IMG/VR virus record: IMGVR_UViG_3300030328_002071
Span: 1 to 40,790 of that record
DNA: 40,790 bases
From: a virus
Reading direction: 5' to 3' (one strand)
A model generated the notes under the pieces. It made no database searches. It was not told where the DNA came from and was given only the letters and a program-made list of their open reading frames with translations. This document shows positions 27,049 to 40,360 of the stretch, piece by piece (the stretch's first letter is position 1; every line of letters begins with the position of its first letter). The translations under genes were made by a program, and so were the position numbers.

Positions 27049-30000
27049 GTGCCTCAGATAAAACCCTTACCAGATGGAAGATTGGTAGAAATACCAGATA
27101 ATTTGACAGAAGGTCAATTACAATGGCTTGATCAAAATCTTTTTAATACACCCACTCAACAAGTTCCTGAAGCTCCTGAAGGGTGGAGTCCTATAGAATC
27201 ATTACAAGAAGTAGTTAAAGGCGTTCCTAGAGGGTTTGCATCAGGTTTCTTGTCATCAGCAGAAGGTATCGTTTCTTTATTTGATAGAGGAAATGATAGC
27301 CCTATAATTGATTCTATTCAAAATATGAAAAGAAGTTTAAGAGAAGACTCTTTCTTAGCTCCTGATGAAGGCATGGAAGATGCTTGGTCTACAAAGATTG
27401 GCGAAGGATTAGGTAGTTTTGCTACATTTGCTACACCAACTGCCTTAGTAAAAGGGTTAGGTCTTGCAGGAAAAGCAGCTAATTTAAGTGCTTTAGGTGC
27501 AGGTCTTGGTCTTGCAGGTACTTCAGGAGTATCTCAACAAGCTGATTTTATTCGTGCATCTAGAGCAAAAGGAATAGATGTTTCAACAAAAAGTGAAGTA
27601 TTAGGTGAACTTGCTGGTTTAGGTATTGGCTTTTCAGAAATGTTACCTATCTTTAATATGTTTAAAAGAATACCTGGGAAGAATCCAAAAATAGCTAAAG
27701 AAGTAAAAGAATTAGAAAAAGCTGCAGAACATAGTTTAATTAAAAATTTAAAAAGATATGGAAGAACAGGTGTTGAAGAAGCTATTCAAGAAACAGCAGC
27801 AGGTATAGGTCAAGAAGCAGTTGCTAAAGGTTTATATGACCCAAATATTCCTATTGGAGGAAGTGCATATGATGATGCTGTTGTTGGCGGTACTGTTGGT
27901 TTCTTAGGTAATATATTATTTGATGCTGTAATTCCTGGCAGACAAAGAAATGGTATGGATTATGCAGATAATGAACAAAAATTAAAAGACCAAGAATCTA
28001 GGCAAAATTTTATAGATACATCACCAGAAAAATTATCTTTCCAAATTGTTCCAAAAGCAGGACAAACAGAAAAAGAACTTACTTTTGATATAGTTGATAA
28101 AAATTCAGGCGTAGTTGTAGGAAATCAAAAAAAGAGAGAAGCCGCAGAAGCAGAATTAAGTAGATTACAGAACAATCAGAATGAAGCTATTTTAGCAAAA
28201 GAAATGAAATCTAATGCAAAAGAACAAGGAAGAGATGGAGACGCAACCTCTCAAACAGCTATCTTACAAGCTAACTCTGATTACTCCAGAAATATTAATA
28301 GAGGTGTAGTTTTATCTACTATATTTGCTAATTCAAAAAGCAATAAATCTAATAAAGATAATTGGGATAAACATATAAATAAAAAGTTTAAAGGTAAAAC
28401 AAAGAAAGACCAACAAAAAAGAGCTTATTATAAAGGTGCTAAACAATATTCTCCTGAACTACTTCTTAATGATAAGGTTATTACAAAAAAACAATATAAT
28501 GAAATCGTTAATGAAAAAGCAGAAGTTATTGCTAAAACTTCTGGAAATAAAACAAGTGCATCAGCTACTGCCATTAATAAAGAACTTAAAAGTAAAAATA
28601 TAGATGAGAAGGTTGGTCTTTCAGCTTCTGGCTCTAAGAATTTACAAAGTTATTTCTTTAATCTGACGGGTAAAAGATTTTGGAAACAAATGAGTCCTGA
28701 ACAAAAGAAATATGTTTTAGCAAGAATACAACAACTTCCCAAGTCTCCTGTTAAAAGAAAAATGGTTGATGTTACTGCAAGACAATATAAAGAAAATCAA
28801 TTCAATAATGTTATTAAAATTCAAGATGAATTGTATAAAAGAAACAACAATAATAAAGGATTTACTAAAAAAGAAATAAGTGCGATGGCAACAGGAAAAA
28901 CCAAGCCATTAACAAAAGAAGCAGAAAATCAATTAATTGATAGATTGATTGATAGTGGAAGAGTTACTAAAGAAAAAGGAAAATATGTTTTCTTTAAAAA
29001 TAGAGGAAAGAAAAATTCTATAGAAAATGAAAATCAATTCCAAAAATCTATGGCTCTTCAATCTCAATCTTATTATGAAACAGCTAATGAATTTAAAACA
29101 AGATTAGGAAAGTTAACTGATAATGATGGAAATAAATTATTAAATAATAAAGAAATAAATCAAATAGTTAGCAATGATAATGCACTTAAAAGAAAAATGC
29201 TTGGTTTAGGAGATGCTGAAATATTAGCACCACAAGCAACTTATGAACTTACTAATCCTGAAACTCAAGCTATAGGGGTAGATGCTGATACAGGTGTAAT
29301 TTCTAAACAAAGAAGAGCATTAAATGTAAGAGAAAGATTATCACAATATGGTCTTTCTGCTCCAGAGGGTATGTCTCCAAACAAAGTAAAAGACATGGAA
29401 AAAGTAGCACAGTTTACTAAAAATGAATTAGAAAAAAGAGGATTACCAGAATTAGCAGTATTATCAGGAACAATATTTTTAGACCCTAATGCTATAAGTG
29501 TTACTGATTTATCAAGGGCAAATGCCGCATATGTGAATGGTGTTCAAAATTTAATACTTAATTATGATAATTTGCTTAAAAAGTTTGATCCAAAAGATAG
29601 AAATAATTTAAGAAATATAAGCGATAGGGTTATTGCCAATAGAATTGGTCAAACAGTTAACCATGAAATATTCCATGCATTTAAAGATATGGGATTATAT
29701 ACACCAGATGAATGGGAAACATTAAAAAGATTTGTAAAAAATACTGTTAGTGCTGATCCTTTCTATAAAAAGAATGGATTAAAAATTAGATCAGAAGGTA
29801 AAGTTATAAAAACAATTGAAAACCCAACATATCTTCAAATTGCAAAAGCTGCTTATAGAGATGCATCTCCAGAGCTTCAATATGAAGAAGCTATGGCAGA
29901 AGCGTTTGGTTTCTTTACTAAAAATCCAAATAAATTTAGTGGAAAACCAAAAAATCTACTTACACAAGCATTAGATTTTGTTCTTGGTATATTTACAGGA

Positions 30001-33000
30001 TGGAATGCTTCTGGATTAAATGCAGGTGCTATTTTTGAATTATCAATGAGCGGTAATTTAGTTACTGATGAAAGATTAAATCAACAATTAGAAGAATTCT
30101 CAAAACAGGAAGTAAGAAATGTTTTAAAAGATGACGATGAAAGCAGAGTTAGAGAACAAAGAGTACCTCTTAATGAATCTGAACAGAAAGTATTAGATGC
30201 TTTACTTCCTATAATGGAAGATGCATCTAGTAATATGGGAGATTCTAGACAAAAATTTATACAAATATTAGAAGATGCAATGAATGATCCCGCAGTTGAA
30301 GTGTCAAGATTATATGTAGAAAGTCAAAGATTAAGAGATATAGCAAATGCATTTGCAGGAACTTTAAGAGTAAAACCAAGAAGTAATTATATAAGAAAAA
30401 GAATAAATGAAGAATCTATAGATAGGCAAAGAGCTAATTTTGATAAAAGACAAGCAGATAAAAGAAATACTAGAAAACCTAGAGTTATAGGAAGACCTCA
30501 ATATCAAGTAAGAGAAGGAGTTGATAGAGATGCTGAATCTACACCAGAAGGAAGAAGTTCATTATCTCCAGAAGAAATAGCAAATAGAGAAAGAGCTCTT
30601 CGTAATTATCAACAAATGAAAGAACAAAGAGCAATTCCTGATACTGGTAGTTTTGATTTATTAGATAATGGAATGCCTTATAGTGAAGCACCTTATGAGT
30701 TTGAAATATCTTTTGCTGGATTAACTTCTGAAGAAATAGATAATCTTACTCTTGATGACTTTAACCAAATAGCAAAAAGAGTCAGAGATATAACAGGTGA
30801 AACAAATTTTAAATTTAGTGAAACATATGAAACTAAAGATAAAAATAAAAATATTATAAAAGAAAAATCATTTAGAACATATGGTGAATTAAAACAAGCA
30901 ATTCAAGAAAGTATTAATTCTGGAGTTAATATGAATTGGTACTTAGATATAGGAAGAGAAGCTGAAAAAATAGTAGGTCAAGAAAATATGCTTGAATTTT
31001 CAGTTTTATGGGCAATTACATCTTCTTCAACAACACCTGAAACAAACTTTAGAAATGCAATACAAATTATGGCATTAGCTCGTGGAATTGATCCTGAAAC
31101 TGGTAAAAAAATTAATAAAAATATAAAAGAAGACAGTAAATCTTTTAGAAAAAATGTACTTAATCGTAGAGGTAAAAAATCTATTGCTAAATCAGGGGTA
31201 AATTTTTCTGATTTTATACCTACTGCTTCAGAAAATACTGTAGATGAAATTATAAAATTTTATGAAGATGGCAGTTGGAAACCAAAAGGTGAAACTGCAA
31301 TTAAAACACCGATGTATGGATTAACAACAATGATGTTAAAAGATGGTGAGTATATGCCATTTATGGTTGCTGATAGATGGATGTACAGAATTTTAGGTAT
31401 TGATGGAGCTATTTCTAAAAGAAAACCAAGTCGTTCTGAAATGACATATGCACAATGGATGATAGCTGAGTTAAGTAATAATGAAATGTTTAATTTTAAT
31501 GATAAACCATATTCATTGAATCCTTCACAAATACAAGCATTATTGTGGTTTAATATTAGAGATAATTCTAAACAACCAAAATTATCAGAAGGTACAGTTG
31601 ATTCAATTATGAAAAAATCAGAAGATTTAGTTAGTGCTATTAATTTTGCAAAAAAAGATAAATCATGGATTGAAGACATTTCTTTTATTAATAAAGATAA
31701 TTATGATTTAAGTGCAAATGAACTCATTGCATTTCAAGGTAGAGGTAATTATGGAACATCTCAAATACCTAGAGTATTAGAAAATAAAAAAAAGTTAGCA
31801 TCAAAACTATTAATTGAAGTAAATCCTGGTGTAGAGCGTGGTTATGGAAAAATTTATAATAAAGATGGTAATTTAGATATTTTAACAATAGATGAAGTAA
31901 TTGATTTAACTGACAGAGTTTACAATGAAATAACAGATAATAATGGTAAAATAATTTTATTAAAAGAATTAGGAATAGCTCATAATGTTACAAGATCATA
32001 TGGTGCTTATGATGGCTTAACAAACCCTAATTTTGTTATTGATTTATTAGGTCAGGATATTAGTTCAGCTAGAGTACAAGCAATAGCTAAAATATTAGGT
32101 GATGCTTTAATGCAAGATGCAGTTGTAACAAGTCAATTAGATTATGATAATGGAGATATTGGTAATGTTATGCTTAGTAAAAAAGGAGATTTTACTGTAG
32201 ATGAAATTATAGCTATTGATGAAGCAATAAATGAAGAAGGAGGAGCTCCAAATTATTACAATCCAAATAATATTGAATCTAATATGCCTACAGGGTTAAC
32301 AGCAAAATATAATGGTAACCAAATATTAATTGTAGATGAACAATATCATAGAGATAATGGAAGATTTAAAGAAGTATCAGATGAAATAAAAATAGAAAGA
32401 CATAAACAATTTGTTGAATTTTTACAAAATAAAATATCACAAATTGACGCATTGTCTGATGTAGAGTATGATTATGTTTCTACAAAAGGAACTTATATAA
32501 GAGGATTAGATAAAGAAAATGGGTATCAAGGAGGAATTGAAGAAGCAGGGATATCGAGTAGCACCGAAGAATCATCCAATTTACAACTTGAAGCCCTCAA
32601 TAAACTTTACATCCCTGCGTGGAAAGCATTTAAAGGATTCCTCGCAGAAAAAAGATTAACAGCAGATAACAATACAGCACCTTATGAGTCCACCGAATAT
32701 ACTGCCTTAGAAAAAGCATTAACGCCTAATGAAGTTAAAATGCAGAAGGTTGTAGATACACTAGAATTTATGAATGACAATCTTGCAGGGGATATGATTC
32801 CTATATTTGATTTAGGAAACAGTTCTCCTTTAGCTCAAGAAGCTGCTTATGATTGGATTACAAGTGAAGATAAAGAAGGAATTGATCCTCTTGGTTTAGA
32901 TACTGATCCTAGAATTAGAGAACAAAGAGGTAAAAAGGGAGAAATAGATTTTGGAGATAAATTATGGAAAGAAAAAGCCGAAAACTTACCAATTGGTCAA

Positions 33001-35712
33001 CAAGTATTACAAGGATTAACAGGATTTCATAAAACATTTAGATTAAATTATTTAGATAGAATGGAAGCTATAGAAAGATCAAGTGTTGGATGGGTTGATA
33101 AATTAAATATGGGTATGTCTGCAGCTTATTCAGCTATTGGAGCCGCAAGATTAGGCGAAAGAATAAAAGGAATGATGCAACAAGCATTAACAGAAGGCGG
33201 TGTCATTTATTATACAACTGGAACAGCTTTAGAAGGTGGAACTAAAGTAGTTCAAAAAACATTTACAGATAGAAATGGAAATACTCAACAAGTACATTTG
33301 TTAAGAGCGTTTACAGAAATCAGCAGTAAAGAAAATCAAAAATTATTTCAAAAGTATGGCGTTGCCAAAAGAATACAGGGTTTAACAAGCGAAGAAAGAA
33401 AAAACAGTATTTTTCTTAAAAGATTAAAAAAAGAAGATTCAAAACTTTATAAAGATATTATGGAAAATCAAGGTGTTGATGCCTTTATTGAAAATATTGA
33501 AAGAACACAACCAAATGTAGCAGATGCATGGGAACAATTTCAACAATGGAATGATGCTGTAATAGAATATGCAAGAGATGCAGGTGTTTTAAATGATAAT
33601 GTGGCAGAAATTTGGCGTGAAAATGCTAATTATTTTCCATTCTATAGAGAATTTGACAATATAGATGAGAGTGTTGTCAGTTTCTTTGGGGAAGATATGA
33701 ATGGTACAGATTATAATAAAGATGGAATAATAGAACCTTTATCTGATTCAGTTCTTACTAGAAAATTAGATGAAAATATTCCTCTTAAAAATTTAGAAGC
33801 ACCTTTTTCTGCAATAACAAGAAATAGTTTAGCTATTATGCAGGTTAGTGCAAAAAATATTACAAGACAAAGATTAGCTAGAGAACAATTGGCTTTATTT
33901 GGAGATGATCCTAATTCAGGCGTAAGAATGCTTTCTCCTGACGAAATAAAAAGAATTAGTCAATCTGAATATGATTCAGTATTTATGTATAAAGTTAATG
34001 GAGAAAAGAAATATTTAGCAGTTGAAGACCCTCACATAATAAAAGCTATAGAAAGTTTTAGTTCAGACCAAACACTTACAGGAGTTTTAAAATGGATTGG
34101 AGTTCCTTCAAATGTATTAAGAGAAATGGTTACAAGAGACCCTGGCTTTATGTTGGTTAACCTTATGCGTGATACTTTATCTGTATATGCAACATCAGGT
34201 GCTAATTTTACACCTATTATTGATAGCATTAAAGGATGGGTAGACCCATTAGAAAACATTAATAAATATGGTTTGGTAAGTGGTTATGATTTATCTAATG
34301 ATAAATATGAAATAACTAAGTTTGTTGATAGAGAATTAACAAAAGCTCAAAGAGATAAAGAAAGTGGCGGAAGAAATTTAAAAGATTTCTTTAGCCCTAC
34401 AGGATTATGGGAAAGACTTGGAAATTGGACAACACGATCAGATGCCTCTACCAGACAAGCTGTTTATAAAAAAGTAAAAGAAGCAACAGGAGATGAGTTT
34501 GAGGCGGCTTATCAGGCATTAGAGGTTATTAACTTTAATAGAAGAGGTGCAAGTCAGGTAGCTAGAGTTGTTACAACAGGTATTCCATTCTTAAATGCTA
34601 GAATGCAAGGTCTTGATGTATTATGGCGTTCTGCAGCTACAAATATTAATGTTTTAAGAGGAAAAGGACAGGGAGTAAGAAGATATGGAGCTTATCAATC
34701 ACTCTACGGAACAGAAAATGATGTAATGGATACAAGAAGAATTGGAAGAAGTTTCTTTATGCGTATAGGCGTATTAAGTGCAATGTCTGCTTTATATTGG
34801 TTATTAGTAAGTGATGATGAAGAATATAAAAATCTAAAAAGAGAAGTAAGAGATGATAATTTTGTTATTCCTATAACAAAAGATTATGCGTTTAAATATC
34901 CTATTGCTTTTGAGGTAGGTGTTCTTACAAAAGTTATTCCAGAAAGAATGATGGATTTAATGTTTGGAGATGCCACAACTATGGAAACAAAACAATCTTT
35001 AATGAGACAAGTAAGTCAAACATTTAAAGTTGACCCAATGGCATGGCAAATATTTGCTCCACTTTATGAAGCTGCTGTTAATAAAAATAAATACACAGGA
35101 AGACCTATTGTTGGTTATTATCAAGAAGGTTTAGACCCTTCAGCTCAATATGAAGATTATACAAATGAATTAGCAAGATGGGTTGGAAATACTATAAATG
35201 TTTCTCCAATGAAAATTGACCATATAATGAAAGGATATCTTGGAACTATAGGTGGTTATGGATTAATGGCGACTGATAAAATGGCTCGTGTAGCTTCTGG
35301 AAGAAATCAATCTCCTTTTGGTATGGATCAAACTCCTGTTTTAAGAAGAGTATTTTTGGATCAAAAAACTTCTAGGGGATTACAACAGAGATACTATGAG
35401 TTAAAAGATGTTGTAGATAGTGTAATTAATACTGAAAGAAATCTAAGAAAAAATAAAAGAGATTTCCAAGCAGCTAAAATATTTAGATATAACAATCAAG
35501 ATATATGGAGCATTAAAAATGAAATGAATGCTATTACTCGATATATGACTAGATTTAGAAAGAAAAGAAATAGAATTTTAACCGATGAAACAATACCTTA
35601 TTCTGAAAGAAAAAGAAGAATATTAGAGTTAGAGGCAGACAGAGATAGAAGACTCATGGTAATACCTCTTTTACAAGAAAGAGCTAATCATTTCAAATGG
35701 ATAGGAGACTAA
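27049..35712 (+). CDS. Giant polyvalent ejection protein with zincin motif, 2887 aa
   Basis: The largest gene, in the T7 gp16 slot. It starts with GTG, supported by GGAGG 6 bases upstream. Residues 5-26 hold PLPDGRLVEIPDNLTEGQLQ. Residues 115-175 are Gly/Ala-rich (GLGLAGKAANLSALGAGLGL). Residues 340-830 are Lys/Asn-rich and helical. A zincin-type site is H872-E-I-F-H876 with a likely third ligand E951 in EEAMAEAFG. Around 1290-1330 lies NWYLDIGREAEKIVG, then LWAITSSSTTPETNFRNAIQ, a conserved-looking domain. Another follows near 1650 (RSYGAYDGLTNPNFVIDLLG). The last 900 residues are helical and resemble C-terminal domains of large phage polyvalent proteins, with a hydrophobic segment near 2570-2590 (LSAMSALYWLLVS). 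It is probably ejected into the host. Confidence 0.75.
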   Translation: MPQIKPLPDGRLVEIPDNLTEGQLQWLDQNLFNTPTQQVPEAPEGWSPIESLQEVVKGVPRGFASGFLSSAEGIVSLFDRGNDSPIIDSIQNMKRSLREDSFLAPDEGMEDAWSTKIGEGLGSFATFATPTALVKGLGLAGKAANLSALGAGLGLAGTSGVSQQADFIRASRAKGIDVSTKSEVLGELAGLGIGFSEMLPIFNMFKRIPGKNPKIAKEVKELEKAAEHSLIKNLKRYGRTGVEEAIQETAAGIGQEAVAKGLYDPNIPIGGSAYDDAVVGGTVGFLGNILFDAVIPGRQRNGMDYADNEQKLKDQESRQNFIDTSPEKLSFQIVPKAGQTEKELTFDIVDKNSGVVVGNQKKREAAEAELSRLQNNQNEAILAKEMKSNAKEQGRDGDATSQTAILQANSDYSRNINRGVVLSTIFANSKSNKSNKDNWDKHINKKFKGKTKKDQQKRAYYKGAKQYSPELLLNDKVITKKQYNEIVNEKAEVIAKTSGNKTSASATAINKELKSKNIDEKVGLSASGSKNLQSYFFNLTGKRFWKQMSPEQKKYVLARIQQLPKSPVKRKMVDVTARQYKENQFNNVIKIQDELYKRNNNNKGFTKKEISAMATGKTKPLTKEAENQLIDRLIDSGRVTKEKGKYVFFKNRGKKNSIENENQFQKSMALQSQSYYETANEFKTRLGKLTDNDGNKLLNNKEINQIVSNDNALKRKMLGLGDAEILAPQATYELTNPETQAIGVDADTGVISKQRRALNVRERLSQYGLSAPEGMSPNKVKDMEKVAQFTKNELEKRGLPELAVLSGTIFLDPNAISVTDLSRANAAYVNGVQNLILNYDNLLKKFDPKDRNNLRNISDRVIANRIGQTVNHEIFHAFKDMGLYTPDEWETLKRFVKNTVSADPFYKKNGLKIRSEGKVIKTIENPTYLQIAKAAYRDASPELQYEEAMAEAFGFFTKNPNKFSGKPKNLLTQALDFVLGIFTGWNASGLNAGAIFELSMSGNLVTDERLNQQLEEFSKQEVRNVLKDDDESRVREQRVPLNESEQKVLDALLPIMEDASSNMGDSRQKFIQILEDAMNDPAVEVSRLYVESQRLRDIANAFAGTLRVKPRSNYIRKRINEESIDRQRANFDKRQADKRNTRKPRVIGRPQYQVREGVDRDAESTPEGRSSLSPEEIANRERALRNYQQMKEQRAIPDTGSFDLLDNGMPYSEAPYEFEISFAGLTSEEIDNLTLDDFNQIAKRVRDITGETNFKFSETYETKDKNKNIIKEKSFRTYGELKQAIQESINSGVNMNWYLDIGREAEKIVGQENMLEFSVLWAITSSSTTPETNFRNAIQIMALARGIDPETGKKINKNIKEDSKSFRKNVLNRRGKKSIAKSGVNFSDFIPTASENTVDEIIKFYEDGSWKPKGETAIKTPMYGLTTMMLKDGEYMPFMVADRWMYRILGIDGAISKRKPSRSEMTYAQWMIAELSNNEMFNFNDKPYSLNPSQIQALLWFNIRDNSKQPKLSEGTVDSIMKKSEDLVSAINFAKKDKSWIEDISFINKDNYDLSANELIAFQGRGNYGTSQIPRVLENKKKLASKLLIEVNPGVERGYGKIYNKDGNLDILTIDEVIDLTDRVYNEITDNNGKIILLKELGIAHNVTRSYGAYDGLTNPNFVIDLLGQDISSARVQAIAKILGDALMQDAVVTSQLDYDNGDIGNVMLSKKGDFTVDEIIAIDEAINEEGGAPNYYNPNNIESNMPTGLTAKYNGNQILIVDEQYHRDNGRFKEVSDEIKIERHKQFVEFLQNKISQIDALSDVEYDYVSTKGTYIRGLDKENGYQGGIEEAGISSSTEESSNLQLEALNKLYIPAWKAFKGFLAEKRLTADNNTAPYESTEYTALEKALTPNEVKMQKVVDTLEFMNDNLAGDMIPIFDLGNSSPLAQEAAYDWITSEDKEGIDPLGLDTDPRIREQRGKKGEIDFGDKLWKEKAENLPIGQQVLQGLTGFHKTFRLNYLDRMEAIERSSVGWVDKLNMGMSAAYSAIGAARLGERIKGMMQQALTEGGVIYYTTGTALEGGTKVVQKTFTDRNGNTQQVHLLRAFTEISSKENQKLFQKYGVAKRIQGLTSEERKNSIFLKRLKKEDSKLYKDIMENQGVDAFIENIERTQPNVADAWEQFQQWNDAVIEYARDAGVLNDNVAEIWRENANYFPFYREFDNIDESVVSFFGEDMNGTDYNKDGIIEPLSDSVLTRKLDENIPLKNLEAPFSAITRNSLAIMQVSAKNITRQRLAREQLALFGDDPNSGVRMLSPDEIKRISQSEYDSVFMYKVNGEKKYLAVEDPHIIKAIESFSSDQTLTGVLKWIGVPSNVLREMVTRDPGFMLVNLMRDTLSVYATSGANFTPIIDSIKGWVDPLENINKYGLVSGYDLSNDKYEITKFVDRELTKAQRDKESGGRNLKDFFSPTGLWERLGNWTTRSDASTRQAVYKKVKEATGDEFEAAYQALEVINFNRRGASQVARVVTTGIPFLNARMQGLDVLWRSAATNINVLRGKGQGVRRYGAYQSLYGTENDVMDTRRIGRSFFMRIGVLSAMSALYWLLVSDDEEYKNLKREVRDDNFVIPITKDYAFKYPIAFEVGVLTKVIPERMMDLMFGDATTMETKQSLMRQVSQTFKVDPMAWQIFAPLYEAAVNKNKYTGRPIVGYYQEGLDPSAQYEDYTNELARWVGNTINVSPMKIDHIMKGYLGTIGGYGLMATDKMARVASGRNQSPFGMDQTPVLRRVFLDQKTSRGLQQRYYELKDVVDSVINTERNLRKNKRDFQAAKIFRYNNQDIWSIKNEMNAITRYMTRFRKKRNRILTDETIPYSERKRRILELEADRDRRLMVIPLLQERANHFKWIGD

Positions 35713-39144: not shown

Positions 39145-39150
39145 CCTAAG

Positions 39151-39166
39151 TATTCCGTATGGAATA
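39151..39166. repeat. 16-bp palindrome, copy 2 (TATTCCGTATGGAATA)
   Basis: TATTCCGTATGGAATA followed by TTTA, 6 bases after the stop of the coiled-coil protein gene. It is the exact reverse complement of the copy at 5943. Left and right arms are perfect 6-base inverted repeats. Confidence 0.85.
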
Positions 39167-39186
39167 TTTATTTTACATTATTAGTG

Positions 39187-39220: not shown

Positions 39221-39596
39221 CTGTTTTTATAAGAATGGCAGAATTTAGCCGTATATATTTGATATAAAAGACAGTATTAATGCTTGAAATAAAAACCCTA
39301 ACATTAAAAATTTTATATAATTTATATTCATATTTCTTCTCCTTCGTTTAATTCCATCTCGTTACACCTTTTTCTTCTTGTGCCACAAGATATGGAACAA
39401 TCAATGCTCATAAAGCTACGCAAATCAACTTCAAGCGAAAGCTGATATGAACTAACTATTAAAAGACTTATTAGATTTACTAATAAGTTTTTAATGTTCT
39501 TTCTTCTTATAGAGAACATTCCCTCACGCTCTTCTCCTTAAAAAAAACAAAAGAGCTATTAGTAAAAGTTAGGTATTAATTTTTATAATGAGAAGA
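39221..39596. other. AT-rich intergenic stretch with little structure
   Basis: Between the candidate terminator and the array promoter. It holds only the doubtful leftward ORF at 39328-39519. No repeats of the 34-bp type, no tRNA-like fold and no rightward ORF with a good start were seen. Confidence 0.5.
39328..39519 (-). CDS. Doubtful small basic/Cys-containing ORF, 63 aa
   Basis: A 63-residue leftward ORF. A basic start and hydrophobic stretch (about 8-27, NIKNLLVNLISLLIVSSYQL) could be a membrane anchor; the tail has three Cys and a charged end (DCSISCGTRRKRCNEME, then LNEGEEI). On its strand an AAGGAG lies 14 bases before the ATG, which is far, and GAGGGA touches the ATG. It lies downstream of the leftward terminator (39622-39651), so it would need its own promoter; a TATAAA occurs near 39585 on that strand. 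The composition looks protein-like, but I am not sure. Confidence 0.35.
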   Translation of the reverse strand: MFSIRRKNIKNLLVNLISLLIVSSYQLSLEVDLRSFMSIDCSISCGTRRKRCNEMELNEGEEI

Positions 39597-39624
39597 TTGA
39601 CATTACATTTTTTTTCCGTATAAG
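39597..39624 (+). promoter_or_regulatory. Strong sigma70 promoter pointing into the repeat array
   Basis: TTGACA (39597-39602, perfect), 16 bases, TATAAG (39619-39624, 5/6). Predicted transcription start is near 39631. The -10 overlaps TTCCGTAT, half of the 16-bp palindrome. No ORF with a good ribosome site follows to the right; the transcript would begin with a hairpin and run into the 34-bp repeat array. Confidence 0.6.
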
Positions 39625-39651
39625 AAAAAGCCCTCTTGGGGATGAGGGCTT
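39622..39651 (-). terminator. Leftward rho-independent terminator / 5' hairpin of array RNA
   Basis: AAGCCCTC (39628-39635) and GAGGGCTT (39644-39651) form an 8-bp stem with an 8-base loop. On the minus strand the stem is followed by TTT-C-TT, so it should stop leftward transcripts from the genes at 40181-40790. On the plus strand it has no T-run and would form the first hairpin of an RNA started at about 39631. Confidence 0.75.
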
Positions 39652-39664
39652 CACTTATATTTTG

Positions 39665-40208
39665 TGATGTTCGCTGTTGGTGGTTCATTTCGTATATGGT
39701 GCTGTTCATACATATTGATTCACTCGAGCGATATGATGTTCATCCACATTGGTTCAGTAATTATATTAACTAAATAGGGTGTGGAAGTAAATATTCCATA
39801 TAGAATATTTATCGCTCTGCATTTATTAGCCATGATGTTCGTTGATATTGATTCATTTATTTTTATTGATGTTCATTTGTCCTGATTCACTCTATTCATT
39901 TGATGTTGACCAATTATGATTCATTCTCATTGGATGATGTTCGGCTATTGTATGATTCACTCCTTAAATGTGATGTTTTATTCCAATGGTTCATTTATTT
40001 TTATTGATGTTCTTAATTTTTGATTCATTCATTATATGTGTTGTTCTTCAAGCATGATTCATTCATTCTAATTGATGTTCTTTCGTGTTGATTCATTTAT
40101 TTCTTCTGATGTTTTATCCCAATGATTCACTTCGATTACTTGATGTTCGTTGTATTTGGTTCACTCTTGGATGTTGTTGTTCATTCTATTTGGTTATCTT
40201 CCAAGAAC
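39665..40208. repeat. 34-bp-period two-box repeat array, 14 units
   Basis: Units start at 39665, 39700, 39734, 39833, 39867, 39901, 39935, 39971, 40005, 40039, 40073, 40107, 40141 and 40175. Each is box A TGATGTTC, 8 variable bases, box B TGATTCAYT, then about 9 variable bases. Step sizes are 34 except 35 after unit 1, 36 after unit 7 and a 65-bp interruption (39768-39832) after unit 3 that holds a palindrome. Boxes vary little (TGTTGTTC, TGCTGTTC, TGGTTCA), while spacers share almost nothing. A period of 34 is not a multiple of 3 and stops abound, so it is not coding. It lies between converging gene sets; the last unit overlaps the end of the 59-aa gene. Confidence 0.95.
39792..39807. repeat. 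16-bp palindrome, copy 3 inside the array (two changes)
   Basis: TATTCCATATAGAATA followed by TTTA, in the 65-bp interruption between units 3 and 4 of the array. It keeps the 4-base spacing and tail of the other copies. Confidence 0.7.
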
Positions 40209-40360
40209 TGAACACACTCTTGAATCTTTTCCTCCGTTTCCCTTTGTTCTTTTATATTCCCTGTTATGATTATAAAGGCAATTACAACGAGACCAACAAA
40301 GTACATTAATAATTTTTCATGCCATTTAAAAATTGGCTCTTTCTTTTTATCCTGTGACAT
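40181..40360 (-). CDS. Small one-TM membrane protein, 59 aa
   Basis: A 59-residue leftward ORF. A charged N-terminus (SQDKKKEPIFKWHEK) precedes one membrane segment (about 18-35, LMYFVGLVVIAFIIITG), then a charged helix (KEQRETEEKIQECVQFLEDN). On its strand AGAGG lies about 6 bases before the ATG, inside the upstream gene, and the two genes overlap by 14 bases, so they look coupled. Its stop falls in the last unit of the repeat array. The short length hides it from most size cut-offs. It is an early-region membrane protein of unknown role. Confidence 0.65.
   Translation of the reverse strand: MSQDKKKEPIFKWHEKLLMYFVGLVVIAFIIITGNIKEQRETEEKIQECVQFLEDNQIE

What the first reader, a model, noticed from the sequence alone, without database searches (positions are those of the whole stretch)
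39665..40208. 34-bp-period two-box array with free spacers
Seen: 14 units, each with TGATGTTC, 8 free bases, TGATTCAYT and about 9 free bases, kept in register over 540 bp. Conserved boxes with unrelated spacers at constant spacing mean selection on boxes and distance, not recent duplication. This fits a multimeric protein binding site (origin iterons, partition or packaging site) or a long noncoding RNA that presents two alternating motifs, for example as a protein or RNA sponge. I know of no named element with this layout.
Basis: partly seen in the sequence, partly recalled or inferred. Interest (0 to 1): 0.88.

Follow-up and report, generated by a model that had tools for sequence, protein, structure and literature searches.

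The report
Phage TIGR guide-RNA array with TasA
The repeat array is a string of 14 short guide RNAs belonging to a TIGR-Tas system, a recently described CRISPR-like RNA-guided DNA-targeting system, and comparing related phages shows that its guides are gained and lost as whole units.

Summary
The 34-bp, two-box array is real and already has a name: it is a dual-repeat TIGR (Tandem Interspaced Guide RNA) array. Read on the minus strand, each unit is edge repeat RARUGAAYCA, 8-nt spacer A, loop repeat GAACAUCA, 8-nt spacer B. [quoted passage not shown]

The Tas gene lies just past the window (40864-41706, minus, of the 62.5-kb phage record). It encodes a 280-aa solo Nop-domain protein (TasA type). 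A family profile matches TasR (9MTY, E 7e-21) and TasH (1e-13), and its model aligns to them at Z 17-19. The same phage has a second array (5 units, from 49188). Of 80 viral loci with Tas relatives, 76 show array-like periodicity. Most have 36-bp units; this one is a rarer 34-bp, short-loop form, also seen in L374.

One part adds to an open question: in related phages whole guides are gained and lost, with breakpoints in the edge repeats and mostly inside the array, while flanking DNA stays alike. No targets were found. What TasA does at its target is unknown.

The parts
39650..40200 (-). TIGR array 1, 14 units; transcript order edge RARUGAAYCA, spacer A (8 nt), loop GAACAUCA, spacer B (8 nt)
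   Evidence: Units parsed and listed in transcript sense; far beyond chance
40191..40200 (-). 5'-truncated (degenerate) edge repeat AAGATAACCA that opens the array; lies inside the 3' end of the 59-aa ORF
   Evidence: 5'-truncated first edge repeat is the published signature
39650..39656 (-). 3'-truncated edge repeat AAGTGAA that closes the array and overlaps the terminator stem
   Evidence: same signature at the 3' end of all six arrays
39627..39652 (-). Intrinsic (rho-independent) terminator of the leftward transcript
   Evidence: 9 pairs, 5 of them G-C, tail TTCTTATACG
39768..39832 (.). Interruption of the array by a stretch with a palindrome that recurs elsewhere in the phage
   Evidence: 99-bp step between units; relative G005 has regular units here
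40181..40360 (-). Last small gene of the leftward operon (59 aa, membrane-like), 5' of the array in the transcript
   Evidence: relatives of this ORF precede the array in G001, G003 and G005

Best explanation
It is the guide array of a TIGR-TasA system carried by a tailed phage. The array is transcribed leftward with tasA and a few small genes and ends at the terminator at 39652-39627 (inferred from the layout). Two TasA protomers bind one edge and one loop repeat through their shared RA...YCA ends (published for TasR with UG...CCA; inferred here). A host RNase cuts in the edge repeats and releases tigRNAs, here predicted to be 34 nt, each with two 8-nt spacers. Spacer A pairs with one strand and spacer B with the other strand of a 16-bp DNA site (published rule). 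TasA has no nuclease domain, so it most likely binds and bends the target and blocks transcription or replication of a competing element. That last step is the least certain (about 0.35); the confidence given is for the identification.
For: Array anatomy: alternating 10-nt and 8-nt repeats, 8-nt spacers, 5-14 units in six arrays, truncated edge repeats at the ends, terminator, against the published definition. Tas protein encoded in the same operon: profile E 7.3e-21 to TasR 9MTY and 1e-13 to TasH, IS621 only 3.1e-4; model pLDDT 85, Z 17.4-19.0 to TasH/TasR over residues 22-276 against 12.4-12.8 for IS110 recombinases. Same kind of array beside related Tas genes in the published Salicola phage CGphi29 and in Microcystis phage Mvi-JY20, and array-like periodicity in 76 of 80 viral loci, the 67 edge-repeat chains all on the tas strand. 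Minus-strand RNA: composition and weak avoidance of structure. The inherited unit is exactly one guide.
Against: No expression, processing or binding was measured. Unit length is 34 nt rather than the 36 nt found experimentally for other systems. No target found. Array 2 has no tas gene beside it.
Confidence: 0.95

Rival explanations
1. A DNA site for a multimeric protein: origin iterons, partition or packaging site.
For: Strict 34-bp spacing and nearly invariant boxes; the phage has a primase-helicase.
Against: Both arrays lie between a gene end and its terminator, all oriented alike; strand-specific composition; the small terminase subunit gene is far away (record about 57 kb); spacers are inherited with the boxes; association with Tas genes.
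Confidence: 0.02
2. A protein or RNA sponge in which the boxes are the binding sites and the spacers are filler.
For: RNA strand unstructured, repeated motifs, 3' position in the transcript.
Against: Spacer pairs are conserved as units across genomes; truncated terminal edge repeats and the cognate Tas protein are unexplained by it.
Confidence: 0.02
3. Bridge-RNA-like noncoding RNA of an IS110-type transposon.
For: The protein is filed as an IS110-type transposase and shares the fold of the IS110 RNA-binding part.
Against: The 280 aa lack a DEDD/RuvC domain; sequence and fold are closer to Tas than to IS110; the array consists of many units and is unstructured.
Confidence: 0.005
4. A string of overlapping small peptides starting at the ATG/GTG in each edge repeat.
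For: 12 of 41 such starts are open for at least 22 codons.
Against: Shuffled spacers give 9.3 +/- 2.2 (p 0.15).
Confidence: 0.005

Closest known systems
SpTIGR-TasH of Salicola phage CGphi29 (Faure et al. 2025, PMC12045711)
   Same: Dual-repeat array next to a homologous protein, 8-nt spacers (16 nt in all), edge repeat AAGCGAGCCA resembling RAGUGAAYCA here, truncated edge repeat before the terminator
   Different: 36-nt units with a 10-nt loop repeat; its Tas protein carries an HNH nuclease domain, which is absent here
TIGR-TasA systems, e.g. FpTIGR of Flavonifractor plautii (PMC12045711)
   Same: Solo Nop-domain protein with a dual-repeat array
   Different: FpTIGR has 18 nt of spacer and 36-nt tigRNAs; repeat sequences of that locus were not compared here
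TaTIGR-TasR (structure 9MTY)
   Same: Nop domain with coiled coil, alternating repeats with shared ends, split guide
   Different: RuvC nuclease domain; repeats begin UG and end CCA; 9-nt spacers
IS110-family recombinases with bridge RNA (IS621, ISCro4)
   Same: Related RNA-binding fold (Z 12.4-12.8)
   Different: Nuclease domain and a single structured bridge RNA; more distant in sequence
CRISPR arrays
   Same: Tandem repeats with variable guide spacers and turnover of units
   Different: Two alternating short repeats, split guide, no adaptation genes reported for TIGR; turnover seen here is inside the array rather than at one leader end

Membership tests
TIGR-Tas (dual-repeat array) | Two distinct alternating 8-12-nt repeats with spacers of about 9 nt | tested here: met
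   Edge 10 nt, loop 8 nt, both spacers 8 nt. Published: 9 nt with exceptions, and 16 nt in all for SpTIGR
TIGR-Tas (dual-repeat array) | Units most often 5 to 15 per array | tested here: met
   14 and 5 in this phage; 7-11 in relatives
TIGR-Tas (dual-repeat array) | 5'-truncated edge repeat at the start; [quoted passage not shown]
   3' end met in all six arrays; 5' end truncated or degenerate in five of six, G002 begins with a full edge repeat
TIGR-Tas (dual-repeat array) | Edge and loop repeats share their ends (box D, box C), covarying | tested here: met
   RA...YCA in both repeats; relatives GA...CCA or GA...CA in both
TIGR-Tas (dual-repeat array) | Nearby gene for a Nop-domain Tas protein | tested here: met
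   Record 40864-41706 (-): profile E 7.3e-21 to TasR, Z 17.4-19.0 to TasH/TasR. Not met next to array 2
TIGR-Tas (dual-repeat array) | Processing into about 36-nt tigRNAs bound by Tas | not testable with these tools
   Needs small-RNA sequencing; 34 nt predicted here
TIGR-Tas (dual-repeat array) | Tandem-spacer DNA targeting | tested here: inconclusive
   No targets above mispaired controls; the host is unknown
TasA subtype | Solo Nop domain without a nuclease domain | tested here: met
   280 aa; the Tas fold aligns over residues 22-276, leaving no room for a nuclease domain
IS110 transposon | N-terminal DEDD/RuvC nuclease domain | tested here: not met
   IS621 aligns from its residue 125 onward to residue 23 of this protein; the N-terminal part is missing

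The most novel reading that the evidence does not exclude
TIGR arrays in phages renew themselves by gain, loss or replacement of whole guides inside the array, with breakpoints in the edge repeats and mostly conserved order of the retained guides. That would be a guide-renewal route unlike CRISPR leader-end adaptation, either homologous exchange between co-infecting phages or an unknown mechanism.
Probability: 0.5. Interest if true: 0.7.

Novelty: new member of a known kind. Interest (0 to 1): 0.5.

Why it matters
It turns a puzzling repeat into a named RNA-guided system and gives a phage with two TIGR arrays. How TIGR arrays arise and change, and what they target, are stated open questions (PMC12045711). 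This phage, its relatives and the further viral arrays give comparative material: guides change as whole units inside the array while flanks stay alike. The few guides kept in several arrays are natural first candidates when looking for real targets.

Tried and rejected
DNA iterons, origin or packaging site (strand, location, composition). RNA sponge (spacer inheritance). Stable RNA structure or a known Rfam family: no Rfam hit, folds no better than shuffles on either strand. Overlapping small peptides: p 0.15. The same boxes in bacterial genomes by DNA pattern: none. Arrays in the four nearest terminase relatives DSL-LC04, 023Pt_psg01, HTVC027P and HTVC023P: no homologous array seen in the regions read. 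Self-targeting: modules do not match elsewhere in the phage better than shuffles. Targets by the published pairing rule: mean best identity 0.868 for true pairs against 0.866 +/- 0.004 for mispaired controls in ten phage genomes or fragments; in viral contigs 110 stretches for a conserved guide against at least 120 for a mispaired control, i.e. chance level. TAACTGA repeats of Beggiatoaceae (PMC4679880) are direct heptamer repeats mostly upstream of start codons and do not fit. A NusA-binding-motif idea from memory was dropped. DnaA boxes: only one near-match in array 1. The first structure job with three sequences was poor (pLDDT 45).

Full report
What is there. The window is the first 40,790 bases of a 62,522-base virus record, and a pattern search of that record found a second array of five units from 49188. 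Five further records encode relatives of the same phage. Four of them hold one array each. The fifth is a fragment that begins inside the neighbouring gene.

Strand and context. On the minus strand both arrays of this phage follow the end of a leftward gene and run into an intrinsic terminator. The spacers of all six arrays, read on that strand, have AT skew +0.20 and GC skew +0.11, like the sense strand of the leftward genes (+0.19, +0.17); the noncoding stretch to the left does not. With the boxes held fixed, the natural spacers fold less than shuffled spacers on the minus strand in all six arrays (z 0.7 to 2.2), and hardly so on the plus strand. Arrays share units, so these six values are not independent. 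This pointed to an unstructured RNA read leftward.

Inherited unit. In comparisons of the six arrays, 15 of 19 unit pairs with the same S1 spacer also share the spacer on the far side of box A, but only 2 of 19 share the one on the far side of box B. So spacer-box A-spacer is inherited as one piece, and box B is the boundary. These pairs overlap in ancestry, so the numbers describe a pattern and are not a formal test.

Identification. The operon that ends in array 1 contains a gene at 40864-41706 (-), just right of the window. It is filed as a transposase (PHROG 4285; weak Transposase_20). Against solved structures its best matches are 9MTY and TasH. 9MTY is the TasR structure of the paper that defines TIGR-Tas systems. 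A profile of 23 relatives gives E 7.3e-21 to TasR, 1e-13 to TasH and only 3.1e-4 to IS621. A model with pLDDT 85 aligns with TasH and TasR over residues 22-276 at Z 17.4-19.0 and with IS110 recombinases at Z 12.4-12.8. There is no room for a nuclease domain, so the protein is of the TasA type.

Reading the array as TIGR. The paper describes alternating 8-12-nt repeats (edge, loop) with spacers A and B of about 9 nt, most often 5-15 units, a 5'-truncated edge repeat at the start and a 3'-truncated one before a rho-independent terminator. In transcript sense this array is edge RARUGAAYCA, spacer A of 8 nt, loop GAACAUCA, spacer B of 8 nt. It starts with AAGATAACCA and ends with AAGTGAA fused to the terminator stem. 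Box B is thus the edge repeat, where published processing occurs, and the inherited piece found above is exactly one guide. Edge and loop repeats share their ends (RA...YCA), as expected for binding by a symmetric dimer. The published SpTIGR array of Salicola phage CGphi29 and an array in Microcystis phage Mvi-JY20, both next to homologues of this protein, show the same design.

Breadth. 230 viral stretches encode relatives of the Tas protein; the best 80 loci were kept. Of these, 76 show array-like periodicity, 71 at 36 bp and three at 34 bp; 67 give chains of at least four edge repeats, all on the tas strand. The 34-bp form with loop GAACATCA also occurs with edge GAGCGAGCCA in L374, whose Tas protein is 56% identical to this one. 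In bacterial and archaeal genomes only two distant relatives were found by this route.

Turnover. G001 and G003 are 95% identical over 330 bp of noncoding flank, yet share only four of their eight and nine guides, in the same order, with different guides between them. In 57 distinct viral arrays, a shared spacer has the same partner across the loop in 184 of 256 cases and the same neighbour across the edge in 70 of 171. Of 21 array pairs that share two or more guides, 18 are collinear and 18 have unshared guides in the interior. Repeated sampling of the same lineages weighs on these counts. Whether exchange between phages or another process causes this is not shown.

Targets and function. With the published rule (spacer A on one strand, spacer B on the other, gap 0-2; the order of the two half-sites is my inference from the described overhangs), no target stands out in this phage, its relatives or viral contigs. 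The host is unknown. The best guess is guide-directed binding and bending of competitor DNA without cleavage, one of the roles the authors suggest for TasA; regulation of phage or host genes remains possible. The nearest named phages by large terminase subunit are Phage DSL-LC04, 023Pt_psg01 and the pelagiphages HTVC027P and HTVC023P, at 53-59%.

Verdict. A new member of a known kind: a TIGR-TasA system with short-loop 34-nt units and two arrays in one phage. The comparative turnover pattern is the part that adds to an open question.

Noticed in passing
record 49188-49350 (L007:9189-9351), outside the window: Second TIGR array of 5 units with its own terminator and no tas gene beside it; its 5'-most guide (TGGACTGC / CGACATAT) recurs, with one variable base, in three related phages.
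   Followed up: yes
window 39150-39180, 39790-39815 and 36996; record about 42049, 48100, 50122, 51967, 55791: Dispersed palindromic element around AGTATTCYRTATRGAATATTTATTTT, mostly between genes; one copy interrupts array 1 where relative G005 has regular units.
   Followed up: no
window 39591-39624: AGAAGATTGACATTACATTTTTTTT is conserved with at most one change in all five genomes just outside the array terminator; on the plus strand it looks like a promoter (TTGACA, 16 bp, TATAAG) pointing into the array, i.e. possibly antisense.
   Followed up: partly
L060:2383-2769 (relative G005): A staphylococcal-nuclease homologue (PF00565, E 1.8e-13) lies between tasA and the array; it could be an accessory nuclease of a nuclease-less TasA.
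   Followed up: no
L062:1307-1980 (relative G003): The tas gene of this record is split into two reading frames, either a sequencing error or a broken gene beside an intact-looking array.
   Followed up: no
PHROG 4285; Pfam Transposase_20 (PF02371): PHROG 4285, called 'transposase, integration and excision', appears to be a Tas (RNA-guided) family, so many phage 'IS110 transposases' may be misannotated.
   Followed up: partly
window 39328-39519 (-): Small conserved ORF (about 46-63 aa, CGTRRK motif) with a conserved noncoding leader, left of the array terminator in several relatives.
   Followed up: no
window 27049-35712 (+): A single 2,887-aa reading frame in the late region; similarly long frames occur in relatives.
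   Followed up: no
record 40791-40800: Ten N bases directly after the window end, so the 106-aa ORF that spans them (L007:525-845) is uncertain.
   Followed up: no
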